The notes under the pieces: model-generated | Seen by the model: the letters and a program-made list of their open reading frames with translations, nothing else | Database searches by the model: none | Told to the model about the DNA's origin: nothing | Assembly: GCA_963681505.1 (NCBI GenBank) | Contig: OY811982.1 | Coordinates: 6,004,683-6,068,682 of the forward strand | Length of the DNA: 64,000 nt | Direction: 5' to 3' | Source of the DNA: Eunapius fragilis | Lineage: Eukaryota > Porifera > Demospongiae > Spongillida > Spongillidae | Made by a program: the position numbers and the translations under genes | Shown: in pieces, positions 25,905-64,000 of the stretch | Numbering within the stretch: position 1 is the first letter of the stretch | Layout of the letters: each line of letters starts with the position of its first letter

Positions 25905-26718
25905 AGCCAAGTCACCAATCATTGTGTGGTGTTGTGATGGCTATGGAGCCAAGTCACCAATCATTGTGTGGTGTTCTGATGGCTATGGAGCCAAGTCACC
26001 AATCATTGTGTGGTGTTCTGATGGCTATGGAGCCAAGTCGCCAATCATTGTGTGGTGTTCTGATGGCTATGGAGCCAAGTCACCAATCATTGTGTGGTGT
26101 TGTGATGGCTATGGAGCCAAGTCACCTATCATTGTGTGATGTTCTGATGGCTATGGAGCCAAGTCACCAATCATTGTGTGGTGTTCTGATGGCTATGGAG
26201 CCAAGTCACCAATCATTGTGTGGTGTTCTGATGGCTATGGAGCCAAGTCACCAATCATTGTGTGGTGTTGTGATGGCTATGGAGCCAAGTCACCAATCAT
26301 TGTGTGGTGTTCTGATGGCTATGGAGCCAAGTCACCAATCATTGTGTGGTGTTCTGATGGCTATGGAGCCAAGTCACCAATCATTGTGTGGTGTTCTGAT
26401 GGCTATGGAGCCAAGTCACCAATCATTGTGTGGTGTTCTGATGGCTATGGAGCCAAGTCACCAATCATTGTGTGGTGTTCTGATGGCTATGGAGCCAAGT
26501 CACCAATCATTGTGTGGTGTTCTGATGGCTATGGAGCCAAGTCACCAATCATTGTGTGATGTTCTGATGGCTATGGAGCCAAGTCACCAATCATTGTGTG
26601 GTGTTCTGATGGCTATGGAGCCAAGTCACCAATCATTGTGTGGTGTTCTGATGGCTATGGAGCCAAGTCACCAATCATTGTATGGTGTTCTGATGGCTAT
26701 GGAGCCAAGTCACCAATC
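25905..26718. repeat. 42-bp minisatellite, ~19.4 copies
   Basis: The unit agccaagtcaccaatcattg + tgtggtgttctgatggctat + gg repeats head to tail with very few substitutions. Because 42 is a multiple of three, a 276-codon ORF with 14-residue repeats (MEPSHQSLCGVLMA) stays open, and a second plus-strand frame is open over long parts. Units 1, 5 and 9 share a variant (gttgtg for gttctg), which suggests an older four-unit duplication step. No splice or promoter context supports translation. Confidence 0.95.
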
Positions 26719-33680: not shown

Positions 33681-33972
33681 ACAAGTAAATAAAAACATTC
33701 TCTCTGAGAAAGTTGGTGGGATATAGGTTTTGCAGGCAAATAGTATACTGGTGTAAAAAGCAAGGAAACAAGTTTCATCAGAAAGGAAAATGTAATAGTC
33801 CTATATTTAGCACAAAAACAGCATATGCCTTAGTCGAAGTGTGCTAAATATAGGACTATTACATTTTCCCTTCTGATGAAACTTGTTTCCTTGCTTTTTA
33901 CACCAGTATACTATTTGCCTGCAAAACCTATATCCCACCAACTTTCTCAGAGAGAATGTTTTTATTTACTTG
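33681..33972. mobile_element. Foldback element, copy C (nearly perfect)
   Basis: Arms of about 132 bp (33681-33813 and 33841-33972) are reverse complements with about one mismatch. They surround a 27-bp loop. The left end is acaagtaaataaaaacattc and the right end is gaatgtttttatttacttgt. The near-identity of the arms implies recent origin or ongoing arm-to-arm correction. The right edge touches a lectin-like pseudo-exon. Confidence 0.92.
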
Positions 33973-34450
33973 TACTCCTACTAATCCATTTACTGGTCTT
34001 CCTATTAACCCAATATTGGCCCAAGGCAATTTCCTTGGTGTATTTGCCAAGACGACCGGGAACTACATACTTTCACCCCGATTGGTACCGTTAGTGCTTG
34101 GAGCAGCATTTACAACAGGCGATAACTCTTGTACTTTTGGCACTCGCTCCCCTGGTATTAGGTTTTATCAAGGTTAAACTCGACCAGTTTGCGTAATAGG
34201 CGATACTATTGATGGCAACTGGTTACTTACCACACAGGCCATACCTTTCAATCTTCGCACCAAGATTACAATTGAGTGCAATGGAGTTGATGTGAAACTG
34301 ACTGTGGGCGCGAATGTGTATGTTGCTAAACAACCTTCTCGTCGTGTCGCTGGCAATCTCATTGTGTACGCTAGTGTTCCTTGTAACCCGGCTGCAAATG
34401 CTCAATTTTATAACCTAGATTACAAGACCCTTCCTGCAGGAACTAATGCC
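33973..34450 (+). pseudogene. Decayed lectin-like exon, paralogue of the RTK ectodomain exon
   Basis: The plus strand encodes, in changing frames, a Pro/Thr linker end (PTNPFTGLPINPILAQGN), TTGNYIL, TTGDNSCTFGTRSPGIRFYQ, then GDTIDGNWLLTTQAIPFNLR, TIECNGVDVKLTVGANVYVA and RRVAGNLIVY followed by NPAANAQFYNLDYKTLPAG. The order and spacing match the concanavalin-A-like exon of the RTK gene (62564-63121). Two frame changes between about 34060 and 34115 and a stop near 34175 break it. The 3' edge keeps a splice-donor-like G|GTAATG at the same codon position as the RTK exon (after N-A). No other exons of this copy were found, so it looks like an isolated duplicated exon. Confidence 0.75.
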
Positions 34451-34480
34451 GGTAATGGATTGTATCATGAGATGATTTAA

Positions 34481-37790: not shown

Positions 37791-38320
37791 CCTTCCTCTA
37801 CTTGCACTTTCTCTCCCTCTACTTGCACTTCCTCTACCTCTACTTGCACTTCTACTCCCTCTACTTGCACTTCCTCTAACTCTACTTGCACTTCCTCTCC
37901 CTCTACTTGCACTTCCTCTACCTCTACTTGCACTTCCTCTACCTCTACTTGCACTTCCTCTACCTCTACTTGCACTTCCTCTACCTCTACTTGCACTTCC
38001 TCTACCTCTACTTGCACTTCCTCTACCTCTACTTGCACTTCCTCTACCTCTACTTGCATTTCCTCTACCTCTACTTGCACTTCCTCTACCTCTACTTGCA
38101 CTTCCTCTACCTCTACTTGCACTTCCTCTACCTCTACTTGCACTTCCTCTACCTCTACTTGCACTTCCTCTACCTCTACTTGCACTTCCTCTACCTCTAC
38201 TTGCACTTCCTCTACCTCTACTTGCACTTCCTCTACCTCTACTTGCACTTCCTCTACCTCTACTTGCACTTCCTCTACCTCTACTTGCACTTCCTCTACC
38301 TCTACTTGCACTTCCTCTAC
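37791..38320. repeat. 21-bp minisatellite, ~25 copies
   Basis: The unit acttcctctacctctacttg + c repeats with few changes, most of them in the first five units. The 21-bp period keeps three or more frames open (TSSTSTC on the plus strand, VEVEEVQ on the minus strand). No gene signal surrounds it. Confidence 0.95.
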
Positions 38321-38329
38321 CCATGCCTC

Positions 38330-45466: not shown

Positions 45467-45671
45467 TTAATATTCATTTTCATCAGCTCCAATGTATGCG
45501 TTTTGCAAGTCAAGATAAAGCTTTTGCCCATGTTCCAGTGGTGCCCCCAGTATCAAGGCCTCAGGACATGTCTGGGTAACATTTTGACTCCAGGTCAAAA
45601 TATTCTCAGCTGGTGCTCCAAGTGATTTGACGAGGTACTCAAAGGAAGGGCGTTGAGCTTTATCTGGATTC
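45467..45671 (-). CDS. RTK exon: end of kinase C-lobe and tail, with stop
   Basis: It follows a TTACAG acceptor. The first base completes the Trp codon of the conserved [22 protein letters not shown] is the end of the kinase domain with its conserved RP; the tail contains [17 protein letters not shown], with three tyrosines. An intron of 5.8 kb separates it from the previous exon. Confidence 0.85.
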
Positions 45672-48600
45672 CTGTAATGTAAGATAAATGTGTAACCGGC
45701 CATGCCTGAAATGAATATGTGCATAGCATAATCAGGGCTCAGAGTGGGAAATCAATTAATTAAATCACTACACTTAAGGTAGGAAATCCTATGTTTCAAA
45801 AACAAATAGTAATACCATGGTTGGATAGGTGACAATGTGGCGATTTCAAATGTGCTTTTGTTTTTGTCAAAATGTTAACCGAGGAAAAGTTATGGGGCAT
45901 CAAAAATTTCGACGCCATATTCCAAATAGTTAGAACATTAGCGTTTCGCAAATAAATTAAGACCGCCATTTGTTCCGTATATCTAATTATCTGCATTTTT
46001 ATTATTGGTTATAGGTTAACTGTTAAGGGTGGGCTATATATAATTGGCAGGTAAATTATTTTTATGGTGTGTCCGTATTCTTAGCCGGACTCTGTTGTGA
46101 ATTTTCATAATGCGTGGTAAATGTGTCTGCGCGCGCGATCGATTGTGTATGCGTTTCAATGTGCGCGCTCGTGTTGTTTATATGTGCGTGTGTTATGTAT
46201 GTGCGCTATTTGTGTCTGCGCGTAAGAAGTTGCGTTGCTGACGGACAACAGCAGCTACTGCTTGGCATGTCCGAGTTCATTAGATAGTAACCACGATTTT
46301 CTACCTCGTGCACTGTAAGGGCTAAGCCCATCTGTAGGCGCTTTCTGGACTATATAATCATGGATTGTATCATAGATATTAGAGTAGATTGTATATAGTA
46401 AGGGGGCGTCTCCAAGGAAAAGATAACGTCATTTTGTCACCATACAATATGCAATAATTATTATAATAAAAGATACAACTGGTTATAATATAACATGTAT
46501 ACACACACATAGCAAATGCATAAAACGAGCCGCTTGTGACATGACAATGTGCATCTTCCAGGGGGTCTCCTGTGTAATAAGATAATCATTATGGACTGTC
46601 TGAGATACTCTACGGGTATAGGTGTGTGTCCTGGGGTGAGCGTCCAGGGTACTGTAGGGGTACAGGTGTGTGTCCTGGGGGGAGAGATGTGAGCCGTCAA
46701 GAGACGTGAGCCATCCGGGGTACTGTAGGGGAACAAGGTGTGTGTCGTGGGGGAAGAGACGTGAGCCGTCAAGAGACGTGAGCCATCCGGGGTACTGTAG
46801 GGGAACAAGGTGTGTGTCGTGGGGGAAGAGATGTGAGCCGTCAAGAGACGTGAGCCATCCGGGGTACTGTAGGGTAACAAGGTGTGTGTCCTGGGGGAAG
46901 AGACGTGAGCCGTCAAGAGACGTGAGCCATCCGGGGTACTGTAGGGGAACAAGGTGTGTGTCGTGGGGGAAGAGACGTGAGCCGTCAAGAGACGTGAGCC
47001 ATCCGGGGTACTGTAGGGGAACAAGGTGTGTGTCGTGGGGACTGAGGGTTGTCTGGTCAGTCAGTACTTCTAGAAATGTATGTCTGCAATGACTTGATGC
47101 CTGCATGGGGACAGTATACATTTATAGCCTGACAAATATTTCTATGCACACTCAATAGACCCATTGCTAGTAGTAGGGGTGCATGGATCATGTGTAATGT
47201 ACATACAAGGCACCCCCCCCCCCCGCCCACTCACCCCACAACAAGCCTTATCCACACTATTGCTTTCGACACTCAAAATGGTGGATCAGACAAATAACAT
47301 CACTTCGCTCCGCCCATTGCACAACCTCTATACATGCTGCTGGGCCCGCTCTTGTTTTATACTTGTCTCCTTGCGTTAACTCGGAAATGATACATATACC
47401 CGGCAGTGTGTAGACCATGGGACCATGTGAGAGTGTGTGGACTACCTTGTTCATACTGTCCAATCATCCTAGGTGGCACGCTCTTTGCCTCTGGTGTCCG
47501 ATGTCAACAAAGCAGCTGCTGTTATCATGGCAACTACTGGTGCTGAAGCCATCCCCTGCTTCACCACTACAGCCTTGTCTGCCTCCACTATGTTTGCTGA
47601 TCCAGAGGTGTCAGGACAGGGACTCCCGGGGCTGCTGTCTGCATATAGATAACAAGGTCGTCACAGAACGCAGCACCACCAACTCATCTGCCACCCCATT
47701 GGTGGCCTCGCTCCAGGCTTGTGTGCTGTAGACTGGGGAGAGGGACTGCCGGAGGTCATGAGATTGGGTCCGCTCTGGGCCTTGATGGTGGAGGTCCTTG
47801 GGTCTCCCTCTCCATGTCCTAGGACTTCTGGATGGGGACTGCTGGTGGGGGTCATGGGTAAGGATGCCATTGGCTGCTATCTGGGGAGTGAGGTTCCAAG
47901 CAGATGCCTGGAGGAAGGGACAGAAGGGACATGGAGATCAGAGGGGGATGGAAGGTGAAAGAGGGAGTGAGTGAAATGGAGAAAGGGAACAGGAGAGAGA
48001 GAGAGAGAGAGAGGAGGTGATTCCTCCCTGCCATGCATTGTACACATGACCTCAGCTATAGATGCATCAGGAGGAGAGATGTTTAACAACCCGTTTACGA
48101 CAGATGCAGGGTAACCTGGGGAATAATTCCCTCCTAGTCCTAGTGTTTCCTATATAAAGCCAATAACCACCCCCTCCTCCCACGTTATGTATCCCTCTTC
48201 ACACTATGTTTGTCACAAAGAAAATAACACTACAATAACCCCCAAGGCTGATCAAAGGGATAATGAACAGGTAATCCAAGACACAGGTATTTTTATGCAT
48301 CAACTGAAGGGGACAGTAGCCATCTTGGATGTACGTACGTTGGGCTATTACATTTAATAATCGTACACCCCCACGGAAGACACGTTATAAAATACATCTA
48401 CCCTGGTCAGCTCATGTGAGCACACAACCCTCTGGACAGTACGTTGTACGCACCCCCCCCCCCCCCCCACACACACACACACCCCAGGACACGACTAACT
48501 TCATATGGAGGCACCCTGGACAATTTTCTTGACCTGGCGGATCCAGCATATTTTAGGTTCATTATAACCGGGCAATTATGGGCCTGTGCCTGCAATTGCC

Positions 48601-51600
48601 CGGAATAACATACGTTGTATGAAGGCTGTATGATCGTGATGGGTAACAGCGGCGGATACAGGTTTTGGGGGGGGGGGGGGGCACGGATGGTGGGTGTGGC
48701 TGGGGGTGGGGTCGGCTTCTGGCCCGATACGAAAAGCGGGGGGGGGGGGGGGGGGGGTGCTGTCGGTTTATGGCCCGATACGAGGAGCGGGGGGGGGGGG
48801 GGGGGGGGTGCTGTCGGTTTATGGCCCGATACGAGGAGCGGGGGGGGGGGGGGGGGGGGTGCTGTCGGATTCTGGCCCAAAACGAAGAGCGGGGGGGGGG
48901 GGGGGGGGGGGGGTGCTGTTGGTTTCTGGCCCGATACGAAGGGCGGGGGGGGGGGAAGTATGATCGCGTATCGGGGGGCCCGGGATATAGTACAGTAGTA
49001 GAGTTCATGCGTGCGGATATCAATAGACAGCGCAATCGTGCAGCTATATTATAAAATGCGGCCCGAAAAGTTATGAATTTATTAATGAAGGGGGGGGGGG
49101 GGGGGGGGGGGGCACGTGCCCCGAGTGCCCCCCCCCTGGATCCGCCGCTGGGTAACCCAGTGATGGTCGGTCATCATCTTCGGTTCGTCTGTGCGGTTAG
49201 TCTCGTACCCAGGCCTTTTGTGGGAGCTAACCGCTAGCTTCGACTTTCTAACCAACTAGACATACTTGGACACAATCAAATCCCGCCTCTCTATAAGAAT
49301 TTACAAATAGTTTAATAAATCAAAATGCAAAAGGAATAACTTAGCACAAGTCAATGGTAAATGTGGTTCCATTGATTTTACAGTTATACATATACATGTC
49401 CATACAACATCACTCAGAGATTTGTCCATCAAATTCTTTCAATTGAGCACACAATGAAGATTTTATTTCCAAGACTGTGAAGTGTCCAGAAAAATCATCC
49501 GTCTCCCCATATGCTTAATGAAAACTGGTAAAGTGGTGTCATTACATCCATATGCATATGCAATGCGTATTAGGAAGTATATATCACGAACTTCATCACT
49601 ATAGTATAGTAGAAAATAAACATTTTATACATTCCCTCTCATGCTATTTTAAATGCTGATCACGTTGTGATTTATGTTGCTACGCCATACCAGGCAATGT
49701 AATATAACAAAGAGTGATTTGTGTAGTTTTTTTAAAGTAGCTGTAGAATTCATACTAAAGTATCCTCTAGTTAACCATACTCCATCCCTGCATGTGACTG
49801 CATTTCCAGTCTTCATTGTGTATTAAGTAAACAAGTTTACAATAGGTACAAGTTTCTGAATGGTTTTGTAATATGTATTTTTGCTGACACATGCTGCACA
49901 ACCCTAATCCATACTTAAGGACACGGGAGTATTTTGCATATGTACATCCAGCAAACTGACAAAAAAGCAGTTTGTAGCATAAAGCTAACAGTTTTTGCTT
50001 AGACCAGATATGTTCACTTGAACTAGCAAAAGTAGTAATTCTGTGTTCACAACCATTTTTTATGCACATACACCAATGTTATCAAATGAATAAGTAAGCC
50101 GTCTACCTGTTACCACTGTGCGCTGTCGTGGGAACGATGTTGGTCAAGTCATATCCACGTATTATAGGGAGCGTCTCCAAACTATTTTGGAAAAGTTAAC
50201 GTCATTGTGAAGTTTCATCCCCCCCCCCCCCCTCCCCCATAACGTCATTGATATCGGAGTCCGACGCCATTTTTTTGGTCAAAATGTCACGAGCCTGACT
50301 CAATGTCAAAATGACGCTAACTTTTCCATAATAGTTAGGAGACGCCCCTTTCTTATAAATAGAAATTTCTGGTCTCGTCATCACTGTAGCGATGACCTAA
50401 TCAACCCATGGAGGGGCTGGATACGAGTCTAAGTGCTATGAATAAATTACATTGTGTAAACAATCTCTGGGTAGATTTTTAATAGGAATATTTCGTATGT
50501 TTTGAACGGAATGCAATATCGGAATTCTGTCTCGTACAAAAGATGGATCCAAATGCTAAGATCTCCCTGAATTTTTAAAGCAGAAATTTGCGACATACAA
50601 AGTTAGCTATATTTTTTTGTTGTGATTTTCTATCTTTCAGGTATGCTTTAAGATATGTACCTGCTGATTTTATAAATTATGCAAAAGTTAATTGTGTATA
50701 TATATATACGACATCATTTAAATTCCATAATAATAAGTTGCAAAGATGATACGGAGTCAAGACATAGCAACTGCATTTCGAACTTTCATTATTATTTTTC
50801 ATCCAAAAAAGTTTGGAAAAAAAATCAAACAAATTCAAATTTGACATCACAACGCATACCTCTCCAGTGTAGAAAAAAATTGAGCGTTTTTGAAACTTCC
50901 GGACTTCCTACCTTAATAAAGCGTACGGGATTGCTGACAGTTGATTATTAAGTATTTTATTTTTTATCCACCACCTATCCTCCACCAAAATCTTAATTAT
51001 AATAGAGGGTAGGCACAGATAGATACATCTTTCTGCCAGCTAGGGTGTGTCATATGAGCACCTATCAGTGCACATGTTTTTACGAGCAACCTGTGCATGT
51101 AAATGCGTGAATTCCATGATGTCAGCAGTGTTTTGGAACCTTATTTTGATAAAGAGATGATTCAGAATAAATAAATAAAAGTATGTGCAATAAATGGAAC
51201 TATTTACATTGATTGCAATGTTTGCTAATGTAGCCTGCTTGCAACGTGTGCAGGTAAATAATTGGCAAGCTACATTTTGATATTGGGATCATTAATGAGG
51301 CTGATCTATTTCAAAGTAATGGATATTCTAACTCTGATACCTATCCCTCTAATTTTCCTTTAAATGAGGTTGCATATGTATGATCTTGAAGTACCCCATG
51401 CACAGGTGTAAAAAAAAATCCATGAAAGTAACGTCAAATCTCGTACATATGATGCATTATTGGATTGGATATCGGCATACCAACACTGAATAATAAGTTT
51501 GTATATTGCCCTGGGACACCCTGGAGGTGGTGTAGCCCGCATACCACTGGATATAATCTTGATCACCTTGCATTTGGGGAGGAATGCAATTTAGAAACAC

Positions 51601-54600
51601 TTCATGATTTGAATGTACATGCCTGTTGGTTGGTGTAGGTCTCATATGGCTTCAAACCGAGGCCCCAAATTTCATACATGACAGCTCCAAAAGACCACAC
51701 ATCACTCATCGTTGAGTACTTTTTGAATTGGATGGCCTAGTTAGGAAATATTGTGCAACTGAATGACACTTCTTGCCACAATTCAATGTACCAACATACC
51801 TCTGGTGCTGTCCACTTAACAGGTATTTGACCACCATGTGAAATATAATACTCATCTTCATCTAATATTCTTGACATACCAAAATCTGAAATCTGTAAAG
51901 GATGTTATTTTCTCAGTGCCATACATGCAGTGTGGTTACTGTGGTTACTTCAACTATATACAGAGCTACCATGTTATTGCAAACAGGTGTGTATTGAAGC
52001 ATTTTAAATATGTAACAACATGTAAGAAATAAACAGCTCAATATAATCATATTAGTAAATGTGACAAAAAACACGAACTGTGTGTTTAAGATGCCAATAA
52101 TACTTAGTAATAGTTACCTTGCAAATTAGTTTATCAGACAATAGAATATTCCTTGCTGCAAGGTCTCTGTGCACAAATCCTTTTCTGGAAAGGTATAACA
52201 TGCCCAGTGCCACTTGTTGACAGAAGGCCAGTAGCTGATTCGGAGAGGTTAATGTCTGCACTTCACCCTGACTAATAAAAAACAGAACAGCATATAAGAT
52301 TCAAATAAACCTTACCCATCCTACCATGGCCTCTGCTTCAGAAGATGATTTCTCAAATCTCCATTAGTGAGTAGTTCCAATACTAATATTACCTATATAG
52401 GTAATGTTTAATGCATCCAAGGGGTACAACGGAATGTCCCAATATATATATAAACACATACAGGAGTTCCAACAGTGACCACTCCATAGAGCTGCACTAT
52501 GTTCTCGTGATGGAATTGCCCATTGATAGCCGCTTCCTGCAAAAACTTGACTTCATCCTCTGGAGAGGCATTTCCTTTGAGCATCTTCAAGGCAACCTCT
52601 TTTTGCTGAGTTCCATAAAGCCACAGTCCTTTGTTTACTGTTCCAAACTCCCCAGAACCCAGATTATTCAAAATTCTAATCATAAGAAAGTATATCATTT
52701 AACCCAATTTACTTCCTCACCACCCCCCCCCCCCCCACCACCCCCCACCACCCCCCCCCCCCCCCGATCCCTAATACTCACACTTTCTAGCTGCATGCAC
52801 CAAGCAATACTTACTGGATGTTTTGCCTTGGAATTTCTAGATAGTTCTGTTCACGGATTTGTTGGTATATCTCTTCATGGTCAGTGGAAGGCATCCAAAA
52901 TGGTTCCATTTCATAAACACAAGAATTGTTCTTCTGAAATAATAGTTATCAAGTTTTCAAGTATTTAGTATTGTATGAGAAACCTACTGTAAATCAATCA
53001 AATCAATCACAATCGAATTTGGACTTTCAGTAATGGTTGGATTTTTGCATGTAGTTACAATGTTCACTTGTATGCAGGTATTACTGTTACCACGAATAGT
53101 TTGACATCAATATATGAGGCTGCATGCAGTTAAACATTACATTTATAATATATCTGTTGGCACTTCATACTTTATATGGAATTATCTGACCACCCCGCCA
53201 TTAACTTTGTGGAGGTGCCATTACTTTTTATTTTTGAATCAACTGGTTTGCATGAATTTTTCTTGGCCATGTCAAATGTTTGCATTTCACATGTACTTAG
53301 GTTGTTTTTGAATTCTTCATCCATTTATGGCTCTATCCCTAGAAAATTTTATTCTATTTTTTATTCTATTTGCAGTTTCTAGGGATAATAGCTGACCGTG
53401 TTATTCTACATACTGTGTGATTATTACTCAATGCTGAACAGCTATTTATATAAATTCACTATAATCTCATTTCAGTTAAGCCACTTACACTTTAAAAGCA
53501 TAAATTATACTAGCGTCCACCTCTATTTTATTCTATTGCATAGAATAAAAGCTACAAATTTTTACCATCTATGTATCCCCGTAATCGCACTGCTATAGTT
53601 CCGCTACAGCTTCCGCTCTTAACATTTGTGTTTCGGATTCTAGTTGTAGTGTGATGCTGTATACAATATCTGTGCACTGGATGTCCCAAAGAAACATGGT
53701 TTTCACGATATTCTAAGTTAAAGTTTTTAAAATTCTATCTGAGAGTTTTTAGGGCTATAATACGATGGTTGACCACCAGTTGTACGTGCTCGTGTCACGC
53801 GCGGGCATCCTAGAAAATTAGGATGGCTGCTTGTATTTGGAAAGAGGGAGTTTACTGTTTTGCACATTCCTCGGAAGCATTTTGTAGACTACAAACTGCA
53901 AAACAACATTTTAACAAAGCTGTCACGTGGGAAGTTGTAATTTGTATATACGTCAAGCAAATTAGTCATTTTCATAACAGCAACCTTGTATCTATTGCAT
54001 TGTAAGAACCTTGATTAACCGCTGAGTCCAGACTAGTGAAAGGGCATGTAGTCGCATGCATCAGTATTGCAATTAATGTGGGCTCATTTCTGTACGCAAA
54101 GCAGTGAAATTTAGCATCAAATAAGTTCATTCTACATGTAAGTCTGCACATGTATCATTTATTATTATTTGCAAGATTGACTCTAGATATATGCCAAGGC
54201 AAAAAAACTGCTTTAAATCATTCCATAATTATATGGAACAGTGTCCAGCAAAATCACCCTTGTGATACTTTTCAAAATGTTCAAGGACAAGCAAAAGAAA
54301 AGTAACGCTTGCATTGAAATGATGGCTAATAATAAATTCAATGCTTAATAACTTCATGCTGGATAGCCCAATTTAGAATGCGTAAGGACCATTTGATAGA
54401 AGCTCTTTGGAGTTCCCGGAAATTCAAACACTTTGAAAACGTGAAAAAACTACCCAGAAGGGTGATTTTGCTGGACACTGTCCCATATATTTATGTATAT
54501 ATACAAATTAAGGTACTTCTATTAGGACTTACCTCACTAAACAAGCCATATAAGTCTTCTGGAACGTTAACTACTGCGAGGTCGTTTCCCTGCAACTGGG

Positions 54601-57600
54601 CTCCAGTAACGCCATAACCATCATATCCATGGAGTTCATAACAACTACTATCGTGTTGTGGCACGTGCGATAACAGGAATTGTTGTTCACCAGGAGGCTG
54701 TGTTGTTGTCTTGTTTCCTACAGCCCTCATGCCGGTTAGCTTAGGGTTTACTTCTGAATAGCCTGCAGTGTTAGACAATATAAGTTATCTTTGGACTGGC
54801 AGCTGCCTCCTAGGAGACTATGTCGCGAATGCACAAACCGCAACAATTTCAATTCTCTTTGACCGGTCATTTCTGGATATGGACCATATATTACGTATAA
54901 ATGACCAGGAGTGAAATATGCCTATAAGGCATAGTTATACAGGCATAGGCATAGCTATACAGGCCTATATCACTGCATGGGGACTCAATGTACATGTATA
55001 GGTCCTTGAAAAGTACTATATACAGCGAATAATGAATGACATACACAGTCGGTTGCACACACACAGTGGCGGATCCAGAAACTTAATGANNNNNNNNNNN
55101 NNNNNNNNNNNNNNNNNNNNNNNNNNNNNNNNNNNNNNNNNNNNNNNNNNNNNNNNNNNNNNNNNNNNNNNNNNNNNNNNNNNNNNNNNNNNNNNNNNNN
55201 NNNNNNNNNNNNNNNNNNNNNNNNNNNNNNNNNNNNNNNNNNNNNNNNNNNNNNNNNNNNNNNNNNNNNNNNNNNNNNNNNNNNNNNNNAATTTCCGGCT
55301 TAGTGTCACAACATTTGAATTGTACCCAAAATAAGAAAGGGTCACAACAACCGCGTTGCTAAAATTCGAACGCAAACAACAGGGTTATAAGTTTTCTTTG
55401 TTTTCATTCTCAATTGGCTGACAATAACAGACATACAGAATGCAGAAATTAATAAGTAGACGATTAATTAAAGTTGACAAGCTTGGCCATATATATGTGT
55501 TAGGCGGTCGTCTATTTAGCATGCAGGCGGGGATGGGAAACTAAAGTCCAGTTTGGATTGGCCTAAAATTTGCTGCATGAATAACTATTAACCAGGTGCG
55601 TAGATGCACATGGAGGATTTCGACATTTACAATGTATTAATATTAACCTCTATATAATCTCTGCATAAATAGGCTAGCCATGCAACTTTTAAACTGCACA
55701 TGCTCCGCATTGTATAGCACCTACCGTTCCCTTGGCTTGTCAGCGTCTTTCTTGCCTTGACAACCCAGAAGAAGCCAATCACCACGAGCAGACTGAGAAC
55801 GAGGAAGAGAAGGGCAACGGTGGGACCCACTATCGCCCCTACGTTGATACCCGTGTTGGCCTCGGCATCTGCACTACTCCTGTAGACGTCAGACTCAGGG
55901 CGGACACCGTGGTGAGTACTTGAGGTATTGCCGATGGTTCAGACGCCGTTGGTGTCTCAACAGACCATCGCGACGATGGGTTGACGGTCGATGTGATTGA
56001 GGCTTTAGGATTCGATGTAAACATGTACGTGGTTGTGGTGGTTCTTTCAGTTGGAACGGGGGCCATCGAGATTGTTCTTATAATCGATGGCGCGCCAGTC
56101 GCACGACTCGAGTTAAGATTTAGAGAAGGGGTTGGCTTAACTGTACTAGTTGCTGATCTTGCGACAATACGTGACCGCGAACTTGTCGTAGGCCTCGAAC
56201 TCTTGGCCATTGGCGATGTAGTTATTATATATCTGATGACGCGCTGTCCGAATGCACCTCGAGGACTTTTGGTTATAAGACCTTATACTGGGTGAAAATA
56301 TTTCACGGCCAACTGTACTCAGGAGCGAATCCAGGAATTTAAATTTTAAAAAGCGGGGGGGGGGGGGGGGGGGGGGGTACCAATCACCAAGGAATGCGGG
56401 GGTGGCCGGGTAGGTGCGGGAGGTGGATATGCCCTCTCCAGCGAAAAAGCTCTGACAGCTAAACGTTGTTAAAAACTCTATATTGCGCGTCGACTATGAA
56501 TGTATGATTAGACGTACGTGCCCATGTATCTGTCACTGGCATTGCCCTCTATACGCCGTTGCTCGATGATGATAGTATTTGAAGTCCTCTGCCTACTGAA
56601 CGTATGTACACTGCACAGGCACGTAAATTTTAGGCTTCAAAACTTATCTCTTTCTGGGAGTGTTAAGATTTCTTTAAAACTGGTACAATAGACCTGTCGC
56701 TATTGGTTTATCAACAATTAATTTGCCAGTCATAATTACTGAGGCCGGCACAGTTGGAGATTGATTATTTAATGAAAAATATAATTAGTTAACCCGTTTT
56801 TAATACAAAGAGTGAACATTTATTTATTGTGCGACCACGGGCTAACCGCGTCCCATCAAAAATCAGGGTATAGGCATGTGCCTTAATCAAAGAGTCCATT
56901 TAATGTTCTATTGTCCTAACTGTGGGAATAATTGTACACCTGCGTTCATGTATATGCACAGATCTTCCGGTTCAGATGTCTTAAGGGCTTAGTGACATTT
57001 AATAACACTGGCACGAGAAAAGTAACATCATTTCGATAGGCGTATATAACAACAACGGGTAATAGCGGAGCTATCCATTTCTCTCCTGCTGTATACTTAC
57101 AAAATGTTATATACTCGCAAGGGTTGTGCTTTTTCGTATCTGAAGGACCTTACTAACTGGATTTGTACTATATGGGATCGAGGCTGCGAAAAGGGAACTA
57201 GCGCATATTTTCAAATTATTTCATATTCAAAGAGACATCTATGTCCTCTACAACTTCTTTCATTCGCACTGGAAATTAGTCTGTCCATCGTAGAGTTACA
57301 GGGTCCTGAATTTTAATTACGCGTACATTTTTATTGCACGCGTGGACTTTGATGCTCCTTCCTGGAAATTTTTATAATATGCGCTAGGTCCCTTTTCGCT
57401 GCCTCGACCCCATATATTAAATTTAACTTGCTTTCGTTCAATTATCAAATGGCAAAGACTGTTTCAGCTGATATACCCCCGAGATGACAGTCAGGACAAT
57501 AGACACGACGTGCAGGATACATTCAGCTAGCATCCATTGTTCATCACAGACTACCTGACAGCAAACCTGACTTGAAATGTATAGAGTGTCCATGTTTTTA

Positions 57601-60600
57601 ACACCGGATCCACGAGAACTAACCTTTTTTTTTTTATTTGTAGAAAGCTGTTTTGAAAAATTAGTCGGAAACGCATTTTGGTATACATATTCTGATAGCC
57701 CAACTCTCGCTGAGTGTTCTAGTGCTATTTTAAACCAGTATCTAGTATATACACTAACCTGCATTCGTTTGAAGCGACGCGGTTTGCAATATCTCGGTAG
57801 TCACGAATAAAGATATACACTTTTTTAGTGCTGTTTCATAATATACTGGGCGCGCCATTTCATTACTATCTAACTCATATAGATGGTTTATAAATGTTCA
57901 GGGTAAGCTCTATTCGCATACAATATCTTGCCCTACTAGTGCCCAGACCATGACCAATATAGAAGTGCTATGTCGCTCGCTCGTTCTACCACCCACAAGA
58001 AGCCAGTGTGTGACAACTGCGATGCTGGGACTAGTTGCACAAAGTGTTGTACATGCCAACCCCGTACGCGCGGTCACCCGAAGAAGGCTAGCGCAGTGCA
58101 GGAAACACCACATCGGTTAAATCCCGAGCGGCGTGCTACATGTACATCACGTTTTGCTGCTGAACCGGCTCGATACGATGAATGAAAGCACCAGCAACTA
58201 TGCATCATCGCAAGTCCACATTTGTCAGGTACTAAAGCTAATGGGTTGCGATGAGCACGAACACTTCCTAGCATCGAAATTAGGCGGCAGGTAATCTAGA
58301 GTGATAAAATAGCAAGGAGTGGTGCGAAATATTTAAAAACAACATGGATTCAAAACCACCATCCTCTTCCAATCCCCGTGCATTAGGGAAAGCAAACACT
58401 GGGCTAGTGTAAGTCCCTTCTACAGCTCCTGGTGTTTATCTTGAAAAGATTTTGGCCGCCTATGTCATCCAATAACAGGATATTCAGGAGTACTTAAGCA
58501 TTAGAATACCCTATTGTGAATTTCATTTTAAACGTAGCCCCACCCCTCCTTATGCATCCTAACCAAATACTTAACCTTACCCCTATGTCACTACATTCAG
58601 GGGTGGATCCAGGGAGAGTTGGGGCACAAATGATAGGTGTTACTAGGGTGGGTACAATCTCGCCCCTGTAGCTAGGTGGTATGGGGAAGCACTTTAAGTG
58701 TTTTGGGGCTCACAGAATCTTCGCACATTGCTCATTTTTTTAATCTCAAGAACTATGTTGAATTTCATTCATTATTAAGATGTCCATGATCATTACTCAT
58801 GCTAGCAGATAAATAGTTTTAAACAATACGTGCGACAGCATATTGTATTGGAAAATTTGTATCAACGAAGAAAGGCTCATCGTACGTGGATCGATGCTTG
58901 AATGCAGATGTGTTTATCGTGTTAAGGGGACACAGTGGTTGAGTGGTGCACCATGCAGCAAGACCTAACCATTCATTAGATATCATACAGTTATTTAATC
59001 GATGAAAGCCACTGAATGAACGTTCTACAAGTAGTGATCGAGTTGTTCTACTTTCAGCTCGGAAAGCATGCAAGCATCAGCAATTATGCAGCAAGATTGC
59101 ATGAAAAAGATACTTATTGGAAACTACGCGAGTAGGTTCCATAGTAATATGCGCTGTTTGAAATGTGTCTATAACGCCAAAGTTGCTTACGATAATGTAT
59201 AGTGGTGCATGGTTTATCTGATAATAGCGTGGGACCAGTTTACTTAGGGTATATTTATCCTATGTATTATATGGCTTCGCTTTGCCAACCTTTATCACCC
59301 TTTGGTCCTCAATGGAGGCAGTCTGGGGATTAGTGTAATATTTTAATGGTACATCTCAACAAAATTGCAGATTTAAAAATAAATCTGTCATGATCGCGCA
59401 ATATGACGTTTTTGCTATCTGAGTCTATAAGTTTCAAGAACTAAATACCACCAGAAAAATTTAGGGAACAAGTAATAAAAACATTCTCTATATGAGAAGG
59501 TTGGTAGTATATAGGAATCAAAGGTGATGGTGGTGTAAAAAGCAAGGGAACAAGGCTTCTGATTGAAAAGGAAACATAAAATAGACCTATATTAGCACGC
59601 ACATTTAATTACGACAACATGCTTCTAGTATAAGTCTATTTCATTTTTCCTTTTCAATCAGAAGCCTTGTTCCCTTGCTTTTTACACCACCATCACCTTT
59701 GATTCCTATATACCACCAACCTTCTCGTATAGAGAATGTTTTTATTACTTGTACATAAAAACTCAACACTTATAAAACAATAATGATGAAAAGGTATATT
59801 GTGGTAGCTTCCCTTGACCCAGGTCAAGTGGAGGTTGTGACATAGGCAAATGATGACCAAGATGAGAATGTGGGCCTTGAATACTCATAATTGAGCTTCC
59901 CAACAAAGAGAATTTAAGCTGCCTCTCAACCACATGATGGAGTCTGGCTCCATTTAGTGGAGAGCAGAGAGGCCAGTTGCTTACAGCTTGTTGTGGCTTG
60001 AGGGCCAAGCCCACCTGTGCGAGAAAGAATAAGCGGTGTGTAGGATTCATGTTCCACTTCATGGATGACTTGTTCATGCAATGATGACTTGTTCATATTT
60101 CCTCATTTTTTCCTCAAAATATGTCACGTAAAAAGTGACGTTTTCGCGTTTTGATTTTTATCCTTCAACTGTTCAGGTTGAATTGAAATAAGTGGAATTA
60201 TCACAGCCAACTATCACTTCTATACAAGAACATTTATTAAAAATCAAATAACGGTATCGATCACTCATTTCTCGATTATAATGGCCTTGTTGGAGCGTTG
60301 TTTGAGACTCTATTTGTAACCCACCACAGTTGCTATGTTTGTGGAAAGCTTGGTTGCAACAGCCAAATGGTCAATTTTGAGTTGCTTCGGCTGCAGGCTT
60401 TCGTACAACTTAGTATGACTTAATTAAGGGTTCATATTCACGGCTTGAAAGTTGTGTGCCTCTGGAGTAGTGCATACTTGTACAGTACAGTGTTGAAAAT
60501 GATACATATTTCAATTTAAGATTTTGTTCATTGAAACGCTTCCCTAGGGAACTAAGGGTTCATAACGTTATTAGAGTATCACTTTGCAGGAGAATCTAAA

Positions 60601-63600
60601 TCGCTTCAAAATCGGCAAATACGTAGAATAGTCAATTCGCTATATTGATTTGTCCGTTAGTTTTACCCGAGCCGTTGCAAAGATAGCTGTGCAAAGTGCG
60701 CGCGCATTGACCGGCTTGATTTGCGCCAATTTATTAACACGCCGCCATCCATACATTGGTGGCACGCATCATTAGCGGCAATCAAGTCGGAAAATATACC
60801 AGCATTTTGCACATGCAGCTATATATATTCAACGGCTATAGAATAGGACACATCAATAGCGACATGCATGGCTGTTCTATGTTTCTCAGTGTAGTACCGA
60901 TTTTGAATATCCTGCTAAGTGTTATTAATAATTAAGTTTTGAACCCCTAGGGGTAACGACCTTTATATCCATTAATAATCTGCGGGGTGCATGAACCAGT
61001 CACTTAAAAATAAAAATAAAAATAAAAACATTAGTCTCTGAAAGAGAACGGATCTGGAATTAAGGTCTGTATAATATATGTGCAGGTGCGATGTAAAAAA
61101 TTGGGAGTCGTTAAATACAATAGCTGGCTGCTAGCATGCTACTGCAGAGAGCCAACACGTGAATACCTTATCATTGTCACCAAGTAGGAAGTGCTGGCAG
61201 ATAATTAAAGTTAAAATTGTCGCCATGCATGAATCTGCCCCAATTTGGTGGTGGAAACAGTGTGTCTCCAAGATGGGGGCACATGTTTTGAACAGAAAAT
61301 AGTAAGAGAGCTAAGTATCTGTAGTTATAAATATAATAAAAAACATCTGGTTTCCACGCCGACTAGGATTTACACAGCAATACGAGCAATCAAGAAATAC
61401 CTGTATTAGTCTGTTTTACATTTATCCACTTCTTCTGTTCCCCTCCGTGTAACTCGTTTCTCTGTCGATATCATTGTCGCATTATGTTTTGCGTATCTCA
61501 GGTTCTTACGATAAAAAAACAACGCGTGGAAGTGTTTATTTTCGTCCTCGTATCCTATATATAATATACAGTAGATCGCAAAGCATTTTCTTCCCAACGC
61601 CTGGACCAAATTTTTTTCGCTCTGTTTCTCGTTTTCTCTGTCAAAAATATTTGTGAATATCCGCCTGCATTTTAGCTGCAACATTTCGTGACACTAGGTT
61701 GGGCCGTTAGCACCTCCGTGCACTTATAAATACACAATGCAATAGGCAGTCTATAACTGGAAAGTGACGAACAATGTCATCATTATACTTAGTGTCCAGG
61801 ATTAATGGACATCAATGCGCCGAATTAAGCTGTCGCTGTCTGTGCATCCGTTTCTGGTTCGCTCCCAGTGCGGTATATATAACTTGACATCCAGCATGAT
61901 ATTTCATAATGCATGCACCTATGCAGAAAACAAATTACCTAGCCTATACATAGCGCAGTACTAAGGCTACATAAATTTAGTGTCCACTACATGGAAAAAA
62001 AAAAAAAGATAAAAAGAAACTGCATTTGGTACATGTTCATGGCTTAATAGTCTTCTTCCCATGTGATTCACCAGCTTGAAAAAAGGAAGGAAAATACAAA
62101 TATTTATGACAGTTCAATAATTAACGGGCAATTATATCAACGGGTACATGAACATAATCTCTTATAAATTTAATTGACAACCATCTATATGCTTTCGCAT
62201 TATTGTCATTAACCGATTACTAATTGAGCGGCGTCAGTATTGTGTTTACCGTTCCTAAAGAATTCTTTTGCAATATTATACGAATTTGAAGTTACTCATG
62301 TTCAAGGCTTCAGATTATATTGTTGAAACCCCCTTCCTGCTACGTAACATTCATCTGCTGCCTCATTTTATTTGGTTTAGTTGTACAAAAATATTTCGGC
62401 GTTAATCGGTTAAGCAGACTGAAAAACTGTCCCTTTATATAAAAACAGTGTAACAATTTACAATGATCCGAGCGATATACGTGCATTTAAATCCCTATAA
62501 TAGTATACATGTATGCATGCATGCATACACGTGTGCAATATATCCTGATCTATAATAGTATACCTGCATTAGCTCTTGCAGGAAGGATCTTGTAATCAAC
62601 ATTATATATTTCAGCATTTGCAGCCGGGTACCAAGGGTCACCAGCGTACACGATGAGATTGCCAGTGACACGACGGGCAGGTTGTGTAGCAGTGTATACA
62701 GTCGACGATCCCACAGACAGCTTTACATTAGGTCCGTTACACTCAACTATAACTTTGATGCGAACATTGAGAGGTAGGTCAAATGACTCAAGTTTCCAGT
62801 TGCCGATAGAAGAATCGCCAATATAGACGCCTAGCTTAGTAGTACCGGGCATAAACCAAATAGCCGGGGCAGCACCTCCGAATTCCCCACAGCAGTCCTT
62901 GCCGGTAGTAAAATGGAGAATGCTTCCCCAATCACTGACCGTACCATGAGCTACAATTTCAAAAGAAAGGATGTAGTTTCCGGTTGTCGCGGAGATTGTA
63001 CCAATTTGATTGCCGCGGACCAATACAGGATGAGCAGGAATATTAGTAGGCGGGGGAAGCGTAGTAGGAACCGTGGGAGGCTTTGTAGCAGGTGGAATAG
63101 TAGGAGGCTTGATGCAATTACCTTCGCCAAGAAAAGTGACAGGTACCGGTGTGATGAGGGTGGGGGAACATATGCATAAAATGGGTAAGCATTAATTCAT
63201 CCCTAGCTGAGTTACATAGCTGCATCATGATCACGCGCGCACACACGTATGTCGATACCGCCCGCACACATGCATGTGCAGAAGACACACATGCATAACG
63301 CACGAAACTTTGTTTAATTCAGTGCACGCGGCTATACCTGAGTAATATGCCTTCAAGCATGAAAGATAAGCTGTAACGAGAAATTGCATGCCATTATTAA
63401 TAACACCATACTTGCATGACTGGCCTTTGTTATAAATACAAGCCTATGCTTACCGTCTTGGGCCGCTTGACATATTCCAACAACCTGATTTATTTCAGAA
63501 ATTTGTTCATTGCTGACACTGTTTATCACTGCAAACATGTCAATAAATAATAAATAAATAGACATACGCATGTACATATAAACTATGTTTGGCTCTCAGC

Positions 63601-64000
63601 CGGTAATGAGGTCTTTATTTTTTTTTTAAACAGAGAATAAATGCGCTCACAGGGTTACTAATCATAGTATGTATTTAATTTACCTGCATTAGCTCTTGCA
63701 GGAAGGATCTTGTAATCAACATTATATATTTCAGCATTTGCAGTCGGGTACCAAGGGTCACCAGCGTACACGATGAGATTGCCAGTGACACGACGGGCAG
63801 GTTGTGTAGCAGTGTATACAGTCGACGATCCCACAGACAGCTTTACATTAGGTCCGTTACACTCAACTATAACTTTGATGCGAACATTGAGAGGTAGGTC
63901 ATATGACTCAAGTTTCCAGTTGCCGATAGAAGAATCGCCAATATAGACGCCTAGCTTAGTAGTACCGGGCATAAACCAAATAGCCGGGGCAGCACCTCCA
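45467..64000 (-). CDS. Receptor tyrosine kinase with lectin-like ectodomain (5' end off window)
   Basis: The gene reads from the right edge leftwards: lectin-like exon A, a 25-residue spacer exon, a Pro/Thr linker with lectin-like exon B, a Ser/Thr-rich stalk, one transmembrane helix, a juxtamembrane segment and a complete tyrosine kinase domain of about 265 residues followed by a 45-residue tail. It should sit in the plasma membrane, bind an unknown (perhaps glycan) ligand outside, and phosphorylate tyrosines inside. Eight kinase and tail exons join with matching phases and give one uninterrupted frame. Key residues are all present: P-loop [12 protein letters not shown] lysine, QEAA glutamate, [16 protein letters not shown] and [15 protein letters not shown] marks a tyrosine kinase. 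The signal peptide exon is outside the window. One frame problem remains between stalk and membrane helix, and exons between 56.2 and 62.5 kb may be missing from this model. Confidence 0.85.
46090..46250. other. GT/CG-rich patch inside the last RTK intron
   Basis: Alternating purine-pyrimidine stretches (tgcgcgcgcg, gtgtgcg) stand out from AT-rich surroundings. No function assigned. Confidence 0.4.
46401..46436. repeat. Single end related to the MITE at 50165
   Basis: agggggcgtctccaaggaaa followed by agataacgtcatttt matches the TIR of the element at 50165-50350. No partner end was found nearby. Confidence 0.6.
46612..47042. repeat. 72-bp minisatellite, ~6 copies, in an RTK intron
   Basis: The unit contains a duplicated gacgtgagcc motif, then atccggggtactgtagggga and acaaggtgtgtgtcgtgg. 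The period equals 24 codons, so ORFs of 140-212 codons stay open on both strands; they are not regarded as genes. Confidence 0.95.
47043..48640. other. RTK intron; GC-richer, no gene called
   Basis: A plus-strand open stretch at 47473-47652 ([20 protein letters not shown]) is protein-like but unrecognised. Poly-C runs lie near 47212 and 48453, (CA)n near 48470 and (GA)n at about 47993-48013. Confidence 0.35.
48641..49158. mobile_element. Poly-G foldback element with internal ~54-bp repeats
   Basis: The ends gggtaacagcggcggataca and ggatccgccgctgggtaacc are inverted repeats. Inside are about four units, each a run of roughly 20 G followed by tgctgtcggtttatggcccg and atacgaggagc. A further G run of about 26 bases starts near 49089. 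The CAGCGGCGGATCCAGG end is shared with sites near 8380, 8670, 55071, 56319 and 58599. Run lengths in the assembly may be unreliable. Confidence 0.8.
49159..50164. other. RTK intron, no feature seen
   Basis: A 100-codon minus-strand ORF at 49767-50069 has no recognisable motif. Confidence 0.35.
50165..50350. mobile_element. MITE with ~40-bp TIRs
   Basis: The left TIR agggagcgtctccaaactat continues to aagttaacgtcat; the right TIR reads atgacgctaacttttccata then gttaggagacgcccct. The middle holds a poly-C run at about 50219-50232. About 186 bp, inside the last RTK intron. Confidence 0.85.
50351..51480. other. RTK intron, no feature seen
   Basis: AT-rich intron sequence up to the donor TTG|GTATGC at 51481/51480. 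Confidence 0.4.
51481..51566 (-). CDS. RTK exon: kinase C-lobe (VIKIISSG...QC)
   Basis: It encodes [20 protein letters not shown] then IYKLIIQC, the conserved segment ahead of the CW of tyrosine kinases. Its 86 nt end in phase 2 with donor TG|GTATGC. It follows a 56-nt intron with GC rather than GT at the donor. Confidence 0.85.
51623..51736 (-). CDS. RTK exon: kinase C-lobe (SDVWSFG)
   Basis: 38 codons, phase 0 at both ends: [20 protein letters not shown] then [25 protein letters not shown] carries the conserved Asp of subdomain IX. The acceptor is CTAG; the donor is CAG|GCATGT. Confidence 0.88.
51800..51892 (-). CDS. RTK exon: DFG and activation loop
   Basis: 31 codons, phase 0: [20 protein letters not shown] then [11 protein letters not shown]. 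It holds the metal-binding DFG, paired activation-loop tyrosines (EYY) and the tyrosine-kinase type VKWTAPE. Splice sites are TTACAG and GAG|GTATGT. Confidence 0.92.
52118..52271 (-). CDS. RTK exon: catalytic loop
   Basis: Encodes [40 protein letters not shown] and [19 protein letters not shown] is the catalytic loop of tyrosine kinases. The first base completes a codon begun in the previous exon. The donor is AAG|GTAACT. Confidence 0.92.
52325..52392 (-). CDS. RTK exon: hinge region
   Basis: Encodes [22 protein letters not shown]-type sequence, the hinge and start of the C-lobe (VLELL..GDLR). The acceptor is TATAG and the donor CATG|GTAGGA. A 53-nt intron follows. These exact sites keep the frame with both neighbours. 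Confidence 0.85.
52462..52675 (-). CDS. RTK exon: kinase N-lobe
   Basis: 71 codons starting [18 protein letters not shown]. It holds the glycine loop GSGEFG, the ATP-anchoring lysine in VALKML, the helix-C glutamate in FLQEAA, and [11 protein letters not shown]. The acceptor is ATTAG and the donor CCT|GTATGT. Confidence 0.92.
52815..52933 (-). CDS. RTK exon: juxtamembrane segment 2
   Basis: Encodes [20 protein letters not shown] then [24 protein letters not shown] and YLEI are tyrosine motifs of a type that can bind SH2 domains; this is inference. Splice sites are TTTCAG and CA|GTAAGT. Confidence 0.85.
52934..54229. other. RTK intron, no feature seen
   Basis: AT-rich intron with short chance ORFs. 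Confidence 0.4.
54230..54489. mobile_element. MITE family 1, copy 4
   Basis: The ends atatggaacagtgtccagca and tgctggacactgtcccatat are TIRs of about 28 bp. About 260 bp, lying 43 bp past the splice donor of the juxtamembrane exon, inside an RTK intron. Confidence 0.9.
54533..54762 (-). CDS. RTK exon: juxtamembrane segment 1
   Basis: It follows a CTGCAG acceptor in phase 1 and encodes [20 protein letters not shown], later [20 protein letters not shown] and [12 protein letters not shown], ending at GAG|GTAAGT. Rich in tyrosines, as expected for a cytoplasmic docking region. No known domain. Confidence 0.8.
55090..55289. other. Assembly gap (200 N)
   Basis: Exactly 200 unknown bases begin 19 bases after a CAGTGGCGGATCCAG site. 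The size is probably a placeholder. Confidence 1.
55725..56210 (-). CDS. RTK stalk (Ser/Thr-rich) and transmembrane segment
   Basis: At 55839-56210 one frame gives a Ser/Thr/Pro-rich stretch ([34 protein letters not shown]), as in mucin-like extracellular stalks. At 55725-55920 a frame shifted by one base gives [20 protein letters not shown], then the membrane helix [18 protein letters not shown] and the basic stop-transfer KARK. It ends at a phase-1 donor AACG|GTAGGT that fits the next exon. The shift between the two frames is unexplained: a small intron, a sequence error or a wrong stalk model are possible. The helix is certain; the stalk is less so. The upstream acceptor was not located. 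Confidence 0.65.
56211..57168. other. RTK intron region; poly-G run
   Basis: A site of the CAGNGGCGGATCCAGG family (caggagcgaatccagg, about 56320) is followed by a poly-G run at about 56357-56377. No gene recognised. Confidence 0.4.
57169..57417. mobile_element. MITE family 2, copy 2
   Basis: The left end tatatgggatcgaggctgcg and the right end cgctgcctcgaccccatata form the TIRs. The interior matches the copy at 21491-21697. About 249 bp, in an RTK intron. Confidence 0.88.
57970..58185 (+). CDS. Small cysteine-rich ORF, unknown
   Basis: 71 codons on the strand opposite to the RTK, inside its intron region: [20 protein letters not shown] then PRTRGHPKK. The spacing C-x2-C-x5-C-x2-CC-x-C followed by a basic PRTRGHPKK looks like a small metal-binding motif with an AT-hook-like tail, as seen in some nuclear or transposon proteins. 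No start context, splice or neighbour supports expression. I cannot name it. Confidence 0.3.
   Translation: MSLARSTTHKKPVCDNCDAGTSCTKCCTCQPRTRGHPKKASAVQETPHRLNPERRATCTSRFAAEPARYDE
58599..58618 (+). repeat. CAGGGGTGGATCCAGG site (transposon-end-like)
   Basis: caggggtggatccagggaga resembles the ends of the poly-G element at 48641-49158. A single end only. Confidence 0.5.
58819..59073 (-). pseudogene. Possible hAT C-terminal (dimerisation) fragment
   Basis: The minus-strand peptide [17 protein letters not shown] and WLGLAAW is reminiscent of the ERSFS..RLK...LA pattern at the end of hAT transposases. A weak match, isolated in an RTK intron region. Confidence 0.25.
59468..59752. mobile_element. 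Foldback element, copy D
   Basis: The left end acaagtaataaaaacattct and the right end gaatgtttttattacttgt bound about 285 bp. The arms pair for about 120 bp: ggtggtgtaaaaagcaaggg and aacaaggcttctgattgaaa are mirrored on the right with very few mismatches. The sequence between the shared family blocks differs from copies A-C. Confidence 0.9.
59753..62563. other. RTK intron region, no exon recognised
   Basis: Minus-strand ORFs at 59763-60077 and 61406-61684 show no motif. A phase-1 exon linking lectin-like exon B to the stalk might lie here but was not found. Confidence 0.35.
62564..63121 (-). CDS. RTK exon: Pro/Thr linker and lectin-like domain B
   Basis: It starts after a GCGAAG acceptor in phase 1 with [20 protein letters not shown], then the domain: [106 protein letters not shown]. 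The alternating hydrophobic strands and [14 protein letters not shown] motifs fit a concanavalin-A-like beta sandwich. It ends in phase 1 at CAG|GTATAC. Ligand unknown. Almost identical to exon A. Confidence 0.82.
63454..63528 (-). CDS. RTK spacer exon between lectin-like domains
   Basis: 75 nt between TTTGCAG and ACG|GTAAGC. It is phase 1 at both ends, so it fits both neighbours: [20 protein letters not shown] then QAAQDG. Short helical-looking segment with one Cys. Confidence 0.7.
63684..64000 (-). CDS. RTK exon: lectin-like domain A (cut by window edge)
   Basis: It encodes the same domain as exon B, from about [20 protein letters not shown] to PARANAG, with only about three nucleotide differences over 317 bases. 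The donor CAG|GTAAAT is at the identical codon. The start lies beyond the window. Confidence 0.85.

What the first reader, a model, noticed from the sequence alone, without database searches (positions are those of the whole stretch)
45467..64000. Sponge-type receptor tyrosine kinase with two lectin-like domains outside
Thirteen exons can be placed by phase and splice sites. The kinase carries every catalytic residue, and the ectodomain consists of tandem concanavalin-A-like domains on a Pro/Thr linker. A lectin-like jelly roll fused to a tyrosine kinase is not a standard vertebrate RTK layout and may mark a lineage-specific receptor family for recognising glycans or microbes.
Basis: partly seen in the sequence, partly recalled or inferred. 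Interest (0 to 1): 0.75.

Follow-up and report, generated by a model that had tools for sequence, protein, structure and literature searches.

The report
Sponge receptor kinase beside lectin-like gene
A probable sponge chromosome carries an animal-type receptor tyrosine kinase next to a gene with two copies of an unclassified lectin-like domain; the two look like neighbours rather than one fused receptor, but elsewhere on the chromosome the same domain appears to head receptors resembling human MET.

Summary
The pieces are real. On the minus strand, 55868-45467 holds ten exons for a 474-aa TM, juxtamembrane and tyrosine kinase protein with the catalytic motifs intact. At 64000-62562 lie two 98%-identical copies of a ~155-aa domain. 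Their union in one receptor is not supported: the closest kinase paralogue has a Ser/Thr stalk in frame with its TM and no such domain found upstream; in the window that stalk is out of frame with the TM; and the domain pair has its own promoter-like start and signal-peptide exon, of a kind shared with relatives. A narrow screen found no signal peptide for the kinase, so one gene stays possible. 'Lectin' is unproven: no significant profile match, and no structure could be predicted.

The idea fares better elsewhere: on C12 the domain shares open frames with a propeller-like domain, and at one locus propeller, PSI, IPT/TIG, TM and a MET/AXL-like kinase follow on the same strand. A survey seen in passages (PMC6374515) dates Met receptors to Bilateria.

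The parts
63684..64000 (-). lectin-like domain exon, copy 1 (continues beyond the window to about 64236; signal-peptide exon about 64930-64803 and TATA-like TTTATAAA also outside)
63454..63528 (-). candidate linker exon [25 protein letters not shown], phase 1-1; its end resembles the end of the signal-peptide exon
   Evidence: inferred from splice sites (acceptor score 1.8, donor 9.2)
62564..63121 (-). Pro/Thr linker plus lectin-like domain exon, copy 2, donor GCAG|GTATAC, phase 1
62037..62074 (-). candidate terminal exon [11 protein letters not shown] after a pyrimidine-rich acceptor; one of 18 such candidates, not similar to the tail exons of relatives
   Evidence: inference
55869..56152 (-). 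Ser/Thr-rich stalk reading frame, out of frame with the TM exon
55725..55868 (-). transmembrane segment ([26 protein letters not shown]) and start of the cytoplasmic part
54533..54762 (-). juxtamembrane exon
52815..52933 (-). juxtamembrane exon with tyrosine motifs (EEIYQQI, NYLEIP)
52462..52675 (-). kinase exon: glycine loop, VALK lysine, alpha-C glutamate
52325..52392 (-). kinase hinge exon
52118..52271 (-). kinase exon with HRDLAARN catalytic loop
51800..51892 (-). kinase exon with DFG and activation loop
51623..51736 (-). kinase exon DVWSFG; followed by a GC donor
51481..51566 (-). kinase exon [13 protein letters not shown]
45467..45671 (-). last kinase exon with RPSF, C-terminal tail and stop

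Best explanation
Two neighbouring genes on the minus strand. Gene A (about 64.93 to 62 kb): signal peptide, lectin-like domain, linker exon, lectin-like domain, then probably a short tail, made as a secreted protein. Gene B (about 56.2 to 45.5 kb): a receptor-type tyrosine kinase whose outside part is a mucin-like Ser/Thr stalk, as in its paralogue; ligand-driven pairing would let the kinase domains phosphorylate tyrosines in the long juxtamembrane region. Shown: the exons, kinase motifs, paralogue layout, shared signal-peptide exon and the frameshift. Inferred: secretion, the linker and tail exons, dimerisation, and that the frameshift is recent, an allele or an assembly error.
For: All ten exons align with the paralogue at C12:6199-6207 kb; 9 of 9 donors and the acceptors of the seven kinase exons are kept there, while the acceptors of the TM and the two juxtamembrane exons could not be compared. 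In the kinase exons 259 of 311 codon positions, stop included, read the same. The paralogue's stalk and TM share one frame. Of the 69 domain matches listed for the genome none lies on its strand within 100 kb upstream, and a profile search of the 12 kb fetched upstream found none. The domain pair has a TATA-like element and a signal-peptide exon; both are alike, by eye, in the two neighbouring genes at 75.6 and 81.2 kb. The signal-peptide query matched 16 of 30 loci at E<=0.01, itself included; two of these loci overlap and show the same exon. A tail-exon pattern hit 10 of 26 downstream segments (one exon counted twice, one hit probably chance; 4 of the 30 loci not examined). Kinase dN 0.087, dS 0.425.
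Against: No signal-peptide exon was found for gene B: a narrow screen (ATG, hydrophobic stretch, strict donor patterns), gives one frame at 57533 without a donor between 62.5 and 56.3 kb, and upstream of the paralogue three frames with phase-1 donors that I judged unconvincing by eye. So neither copy has a start of its own that I can show. The domain-exon donor is kept in 26 of 30 loci by eye, and the lectin 2 donor and the stalk acceptors 56140 and 56152 are phase 1, so splicing between them is allowed. The tail exon of relatives was not found after lectin 1 or 2.
Confidence: 0.57

Rival explanations
1. One gene: signal peptide, two lectin-like domains, Ser/Thr stalk, TM, tyrosine kinase, with a 6.4-kb intron; the frameshift is an assembly error or an allele.
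For: Phases agree at phase 1; the domain-exon donor is kept in 26 of 30 loci by eye; no other signal peptide was found for the kinase; the same domain is linked to kinases at other loci.
Against: Paralogue without the domain; stalk out of frame with TM; relatives that end after the domain; 18 pyrimidine-rich in-phase acceptors leading to short terminal frames lie in the would-be intron, though chance gives such sites too.
Confidence: 0.28
2. The kinase gene is a recent pseudogene: the frameshift uncouples stalk from TM and nothing functional is made.
For: A frame break relative to the paralogue between stalk and TM; no start found.
Against: 474 aa open over ten exons; dN well below dS; no acceleration in the window copy (4 changes unique to the window, 8 to the paralogue, 19 ambiguous).
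Confidence: 0.12

Closest known systems
Metazoan receptor tyrosine kinases; Eph kinases among the nearest solved ones
   Same: TM segment, juxtamembrane tyrosines, complete tyrosine kinase. In PDB one entry labelled EGFR (9p9u) leads at E=9e-96, why is not clear; then Eph kinases at about 1e-70, then Src/Abl, BTK (best 60 of 914 seen)
   Different: Outside part is a Ser/Thr stalk; no ephrin-binding domain was noticed, but the stalk was not searched by profile. Not assigned to Eph
EGF-bearing receptor kinases on C23 of the same genome
   Same: 57-68% identical over the matched exon in the best C23 rows
   Different: Outside part has a different N-terminal region and an EGF repeat (one locus, read by eye)
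MET/RON receptors (relevant to the L017/L047 locus, not to the window gene)
   Same: PSI and IPT/TIG by Pfam, TM by eye, kinase whose PDB matches after the EGFR entry are AXL, MET, RON, propeller-like domain in the Sema place
   Different: Propeller not recognised as Sema by Pfam; extra N-terminal lectin-like domain; tandem arrays
Concanavalin A-like / Laminin_G_3 domains
   Same: Length; one of 26 family members gave Laminin_G_3 at E=0.0078
   Different: No significant match for the window copies to Pfam or NCBIfam, nor for the family profile to PDB

Membership tests
Receptor tyrosine kinase | tyrosine kinase domain with catalytic residues | tested here: met
   motifs by eye
Receptor tyrosine kinase | single TM segment in frame with the kinase | tested here: met
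   TM recognised by eye
Receptor tyrosine kinase | signal peptide and outside part in frame with the TM | tested here: inconclusive
   stalk out of frame in this assembly, in frame in the paralogue; no signal peptide found by a narrow screen
Lectin-RTK fusion at this locus | lectin-like exons and kinase exons in one transcript | not testable with these tools
   no transcript data; indirect evidence mostly against
Concanavalin A-like lectin | significant profile match or fold match | tested here: inconclusive
   profiles negative; structure prediction never accepted, queue full (20 tries)
Concanavalin A-like lectin | sugar binding | not testable with these tools
   none
Eph receptor | ephrin-binding domain | not tested
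   none noticed in the exons read; no profile search of the stalk
MET-type RTK (L017/L047 locus) | Sema propeller | tested here: inconclusive
   profile meets only repeat proteins named Cake and Scone, which I recall as designed propellers; no Pfam Sema
MET-type RTK (L017/L047 locus) | PSI and IPT/TIG repeats | tested here: met
   PSI E=9e-10, TIG E=3e-15
MET-type RTK (L017/L047 locus) | kinase of the MET family | tested here: inconclusive
   AXL ranks before MET and RON, after an EGFR entry (incomplete kinase); no tree built

The most novel reading that the evidence does not exclude
This sponge has a large array of MET-like receptor tyrosine kinases (40 propeller places and 36 kinase-exon places on C12, four of each on C15), a subset of which gained an N-terminal copy of an undescribed, fast-diverging domain that is also made as secreted proteins. 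Receptor heads and soluble relatives sharing one recognition domain would be a lineage-specific recognition system, and MET-type receptors would predate Bilateria or have arisen twice. The window pair could be a further fusion in progress.
Probability: 0.5. Interest if true: 0.75.

Novelty: new variant of a known kind. Interest (0 to 1): 0.52.

Why it matters
If the MET-like loci hold up, receptor kinases with PSI-IPT outside parts exist in a sponge, which bears on when this receptor layout arose; the survey I saw in passages (PMC6374515) dates Met receptors to the bilaterian ancestor and reports plexins and semaphorins in Amphimedon. A shared head domain on kinases and on secreted proteins in expanded arrays is what one would look for in an allorecognition or microbe-sensing system in an animal without adaptive immunity; that function is speculation.

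Tried and rejected
Poly(A) signals as a sign of gene ends after the domain exons: 10 of 30 loci have one within 250 nt, 8.1 expected, so uninformative. Dating the lectin and kinase duplications by dS: lectin window against the two neighbours 0.61 and 0.57, kinase 0.43, not decisive. Prokaryote relatives of the domain: 158 stretches matched a pattern, none confirmed. A direct splice from lectin 2 to the TM exon: one phase-fitting acceptor, score -1.8. The 'Eph receptor' label: kinase similarity only. Kinase phylogeny: not done; ranking by PDB matches used instead. Intimin in the PDB profile search (E=0.021) was treated as chance.

Full report
The window is C12:6004683-6068682 of an unnamed 219-Mb genome in 24 contigs. 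The gene in question runs on the minus strand, so I extended the window by 40 kb to see its upstream end.

Kinase part. Ten exons from 55868 to 45467 join to 474 aa with consistent phases: TM segment, juxtamembrane region with several tyrosines, full tyrosine kinase, short tail. One intron has a GC donor. All ten align with a paralogue at C12:6199-6207 kb on the plus strand; eight do so to within 4 nt of both ends, the two juxtamembrane exons only in their 3' part. Nine of nine donors are kept, the GC donor too, and the acceptors of the seven kinase exons; the other three acceptors could not be compared. Over the seven kinase exons 259 of 311 codon positions, stop included, read the same, dN is 0.087 and dS 0.425; 4 changes are unique to the window, 8 to the paralogue and 19 ambiguous against a C23 outgroup. 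So the kinase has been under constraint.

Outside part of the kinase gene. In the paralogue a Ser/Thr-rich stalk and the TM share one reading frame. In the window the matching stalk is in another frame than the TM: the stretch just before the shared GCC GAG GCC codons differs in length by a number of bases that is not a multiple of three. I cannot tell a true lesion from an assembly error. A narrow screen found no convincing signal-peptide exon for either copy, and queries made from the lectin genes' signal peptides found none at the paralogue. This counts against my two-gene reading.

Lectin-like part. Two exons, 98% identical in protein and dS 0.018, are separated by a small candidate exon that looks like the end of a duplicated signal-peptide exon now used as a linker. 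Upstream lie a signal-peptide exon (64930-64803) and a TATA-like TTTATAAA. The same kind of start sits before the two neighbouring plus-strand genes at 75.6 and 81.2 kb, whose domain exon runs into a stop because the usual donor is lost. By eye the donor is kept in 26 of 30 loci, missing in L010, L013, L019 and L023. The signal-peptide query matches the 1.5-kb upstream flank of 16 of 30 loci at E<=0.01, itself included; L025 and L027 overlap and show the same exon. A tail-exon pattern (G[IL]TSQ...* in most) hit 10 of 26 segments: L025 and L027 again share one exon, the L008 hit is probably chance, L016, L017, L022 and L028 were not examined, and none was found after the window copies. A short in-phase exon after a pyrimidine-rich acceptor exists at 62074, one of 18 such candidates, and does not resemble those tails.

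Identity of the domain. Genome-wide there are 69 matches (69 candidates, all scored). The window copies match nothing in Pfam and copy 2 nothing in NCBIfam; 1 of 26 members gives Laminin_G_3 at E=0.0078. A profile against PDB gives nothing credible. The 'lectin' label therefore rests on the look of the sequence.

Link at this locus. For one gene: agreement of phase 1 and the lack of another signal peptide. Against: the paralogue without the domain, the frame break, and the stand-alone relatives. I put two genes at 0.57, one gene at 0.28.

Elsewhere on C12. At C12:397, 444 and 908 kb the domain and a propeller-like domain lie in one open frame (540, 541 and 520 aa; two of the three read). Of 17 domain places on C12 below 2.5 Mb (one split piece dropped), 10 have a same-strand propeller within 5 kb downstream; controls are 0 for opposite strand and 0 for upstream. 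Of 40 propeller places on C12 (one short piece dropped), 18 have one of 36 same-strand MET-like kinase-exon places (one second piece dropped) within 20 kb downstream, against 2 on the opposite strand and 10 upstream on the same strand, so in these arrays spacing alone is weak evidence; on C15 4 of 4 lie within 8.2 kb. At L017 plus L047, domain, propeller, PSI, IPT/TIG, TM and kinase follow on one strand. Frame-consistent introns exist at every junction that needs one, some with poor scores and one of about 3.2 kb, and I ran no control for this. Its kinase, typed without its first exon, best matches AXL, MET and RON after one entry labelled EGFR. A C15 locus shows propeller, PSI, TM and kinase in the same order within about 5.7 kb (by eye), and no domain match lies on C15. 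The start of the domain-propeller genes is not settled: of the ten with a propeller within 5 kb, four had their upstream flank searched (L009, L016, L017, L028), and only L009 gave a weak signal-peptide candidate (best E=0.085).

Literature. Seen in passages: PMC6374515 (Met receptors traced to Bilateria; in Amphimedon plexins and semaphorins), PMC8242945, PMC8662651, PMC5793068; the rest only as listings. Searches of the held library listed no title or abstract start on a sponge MET-like or lectin-headed kinase; lists were cut at 8 to 15 rows, and most subscription journals are not held.

Noticed in passing
window 32900-34480, plus strand: Another signal-peptide exon and a decayed copy of the lectin-like domain with an internal stop and lost stretches
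   Followed up: partly
L047 with L017 (C12:297001-309102), L048, L049: Lectin-like domain joined to a propeller, PSI, IPT/TIG, TM and MET/AXL-like kinase; propeller and kinase places spread over C12 0.04-2.25 Mb
   Followed up: yes
L051 (C15:1437000-1446500): Compact MET-like receptor gene without the lectin-like domain; three more propeller-kinase pairs on C15
   Followed up: partly
C7:2.76-2.92 Mb: Array of 19 matches to the lectin-like domain; a tail exon was seen in 5 of the 6 loci fetched from there, two of which overlap
   Followed up: partly
L050 with L036 (C23:3930069-3943250): Related receptor kinase with another N-terminal region and an EGF repeat (by eye)
   Followed up: partly
window 25905-26718, 37795-38321, 46636-47040, 48702-48955: Tandem repeat arrays; the last two lie in the 5.8-kb intron before the last kinase exon, which is 0.65 kb in the paralogue
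   Followed up: no
window 59455-59766: Element matching itself in both directions with copies at the paralogue and two other loci, probably mobile
   Followed up: no
window 55090-55289: Run of 200 N in the intron after the TM exon
   Followed up: no
L001, about 66.7-68.5 kb in extended window coordinates: Trinucleotide repeat of about 1.7 kb
   Followed up: no
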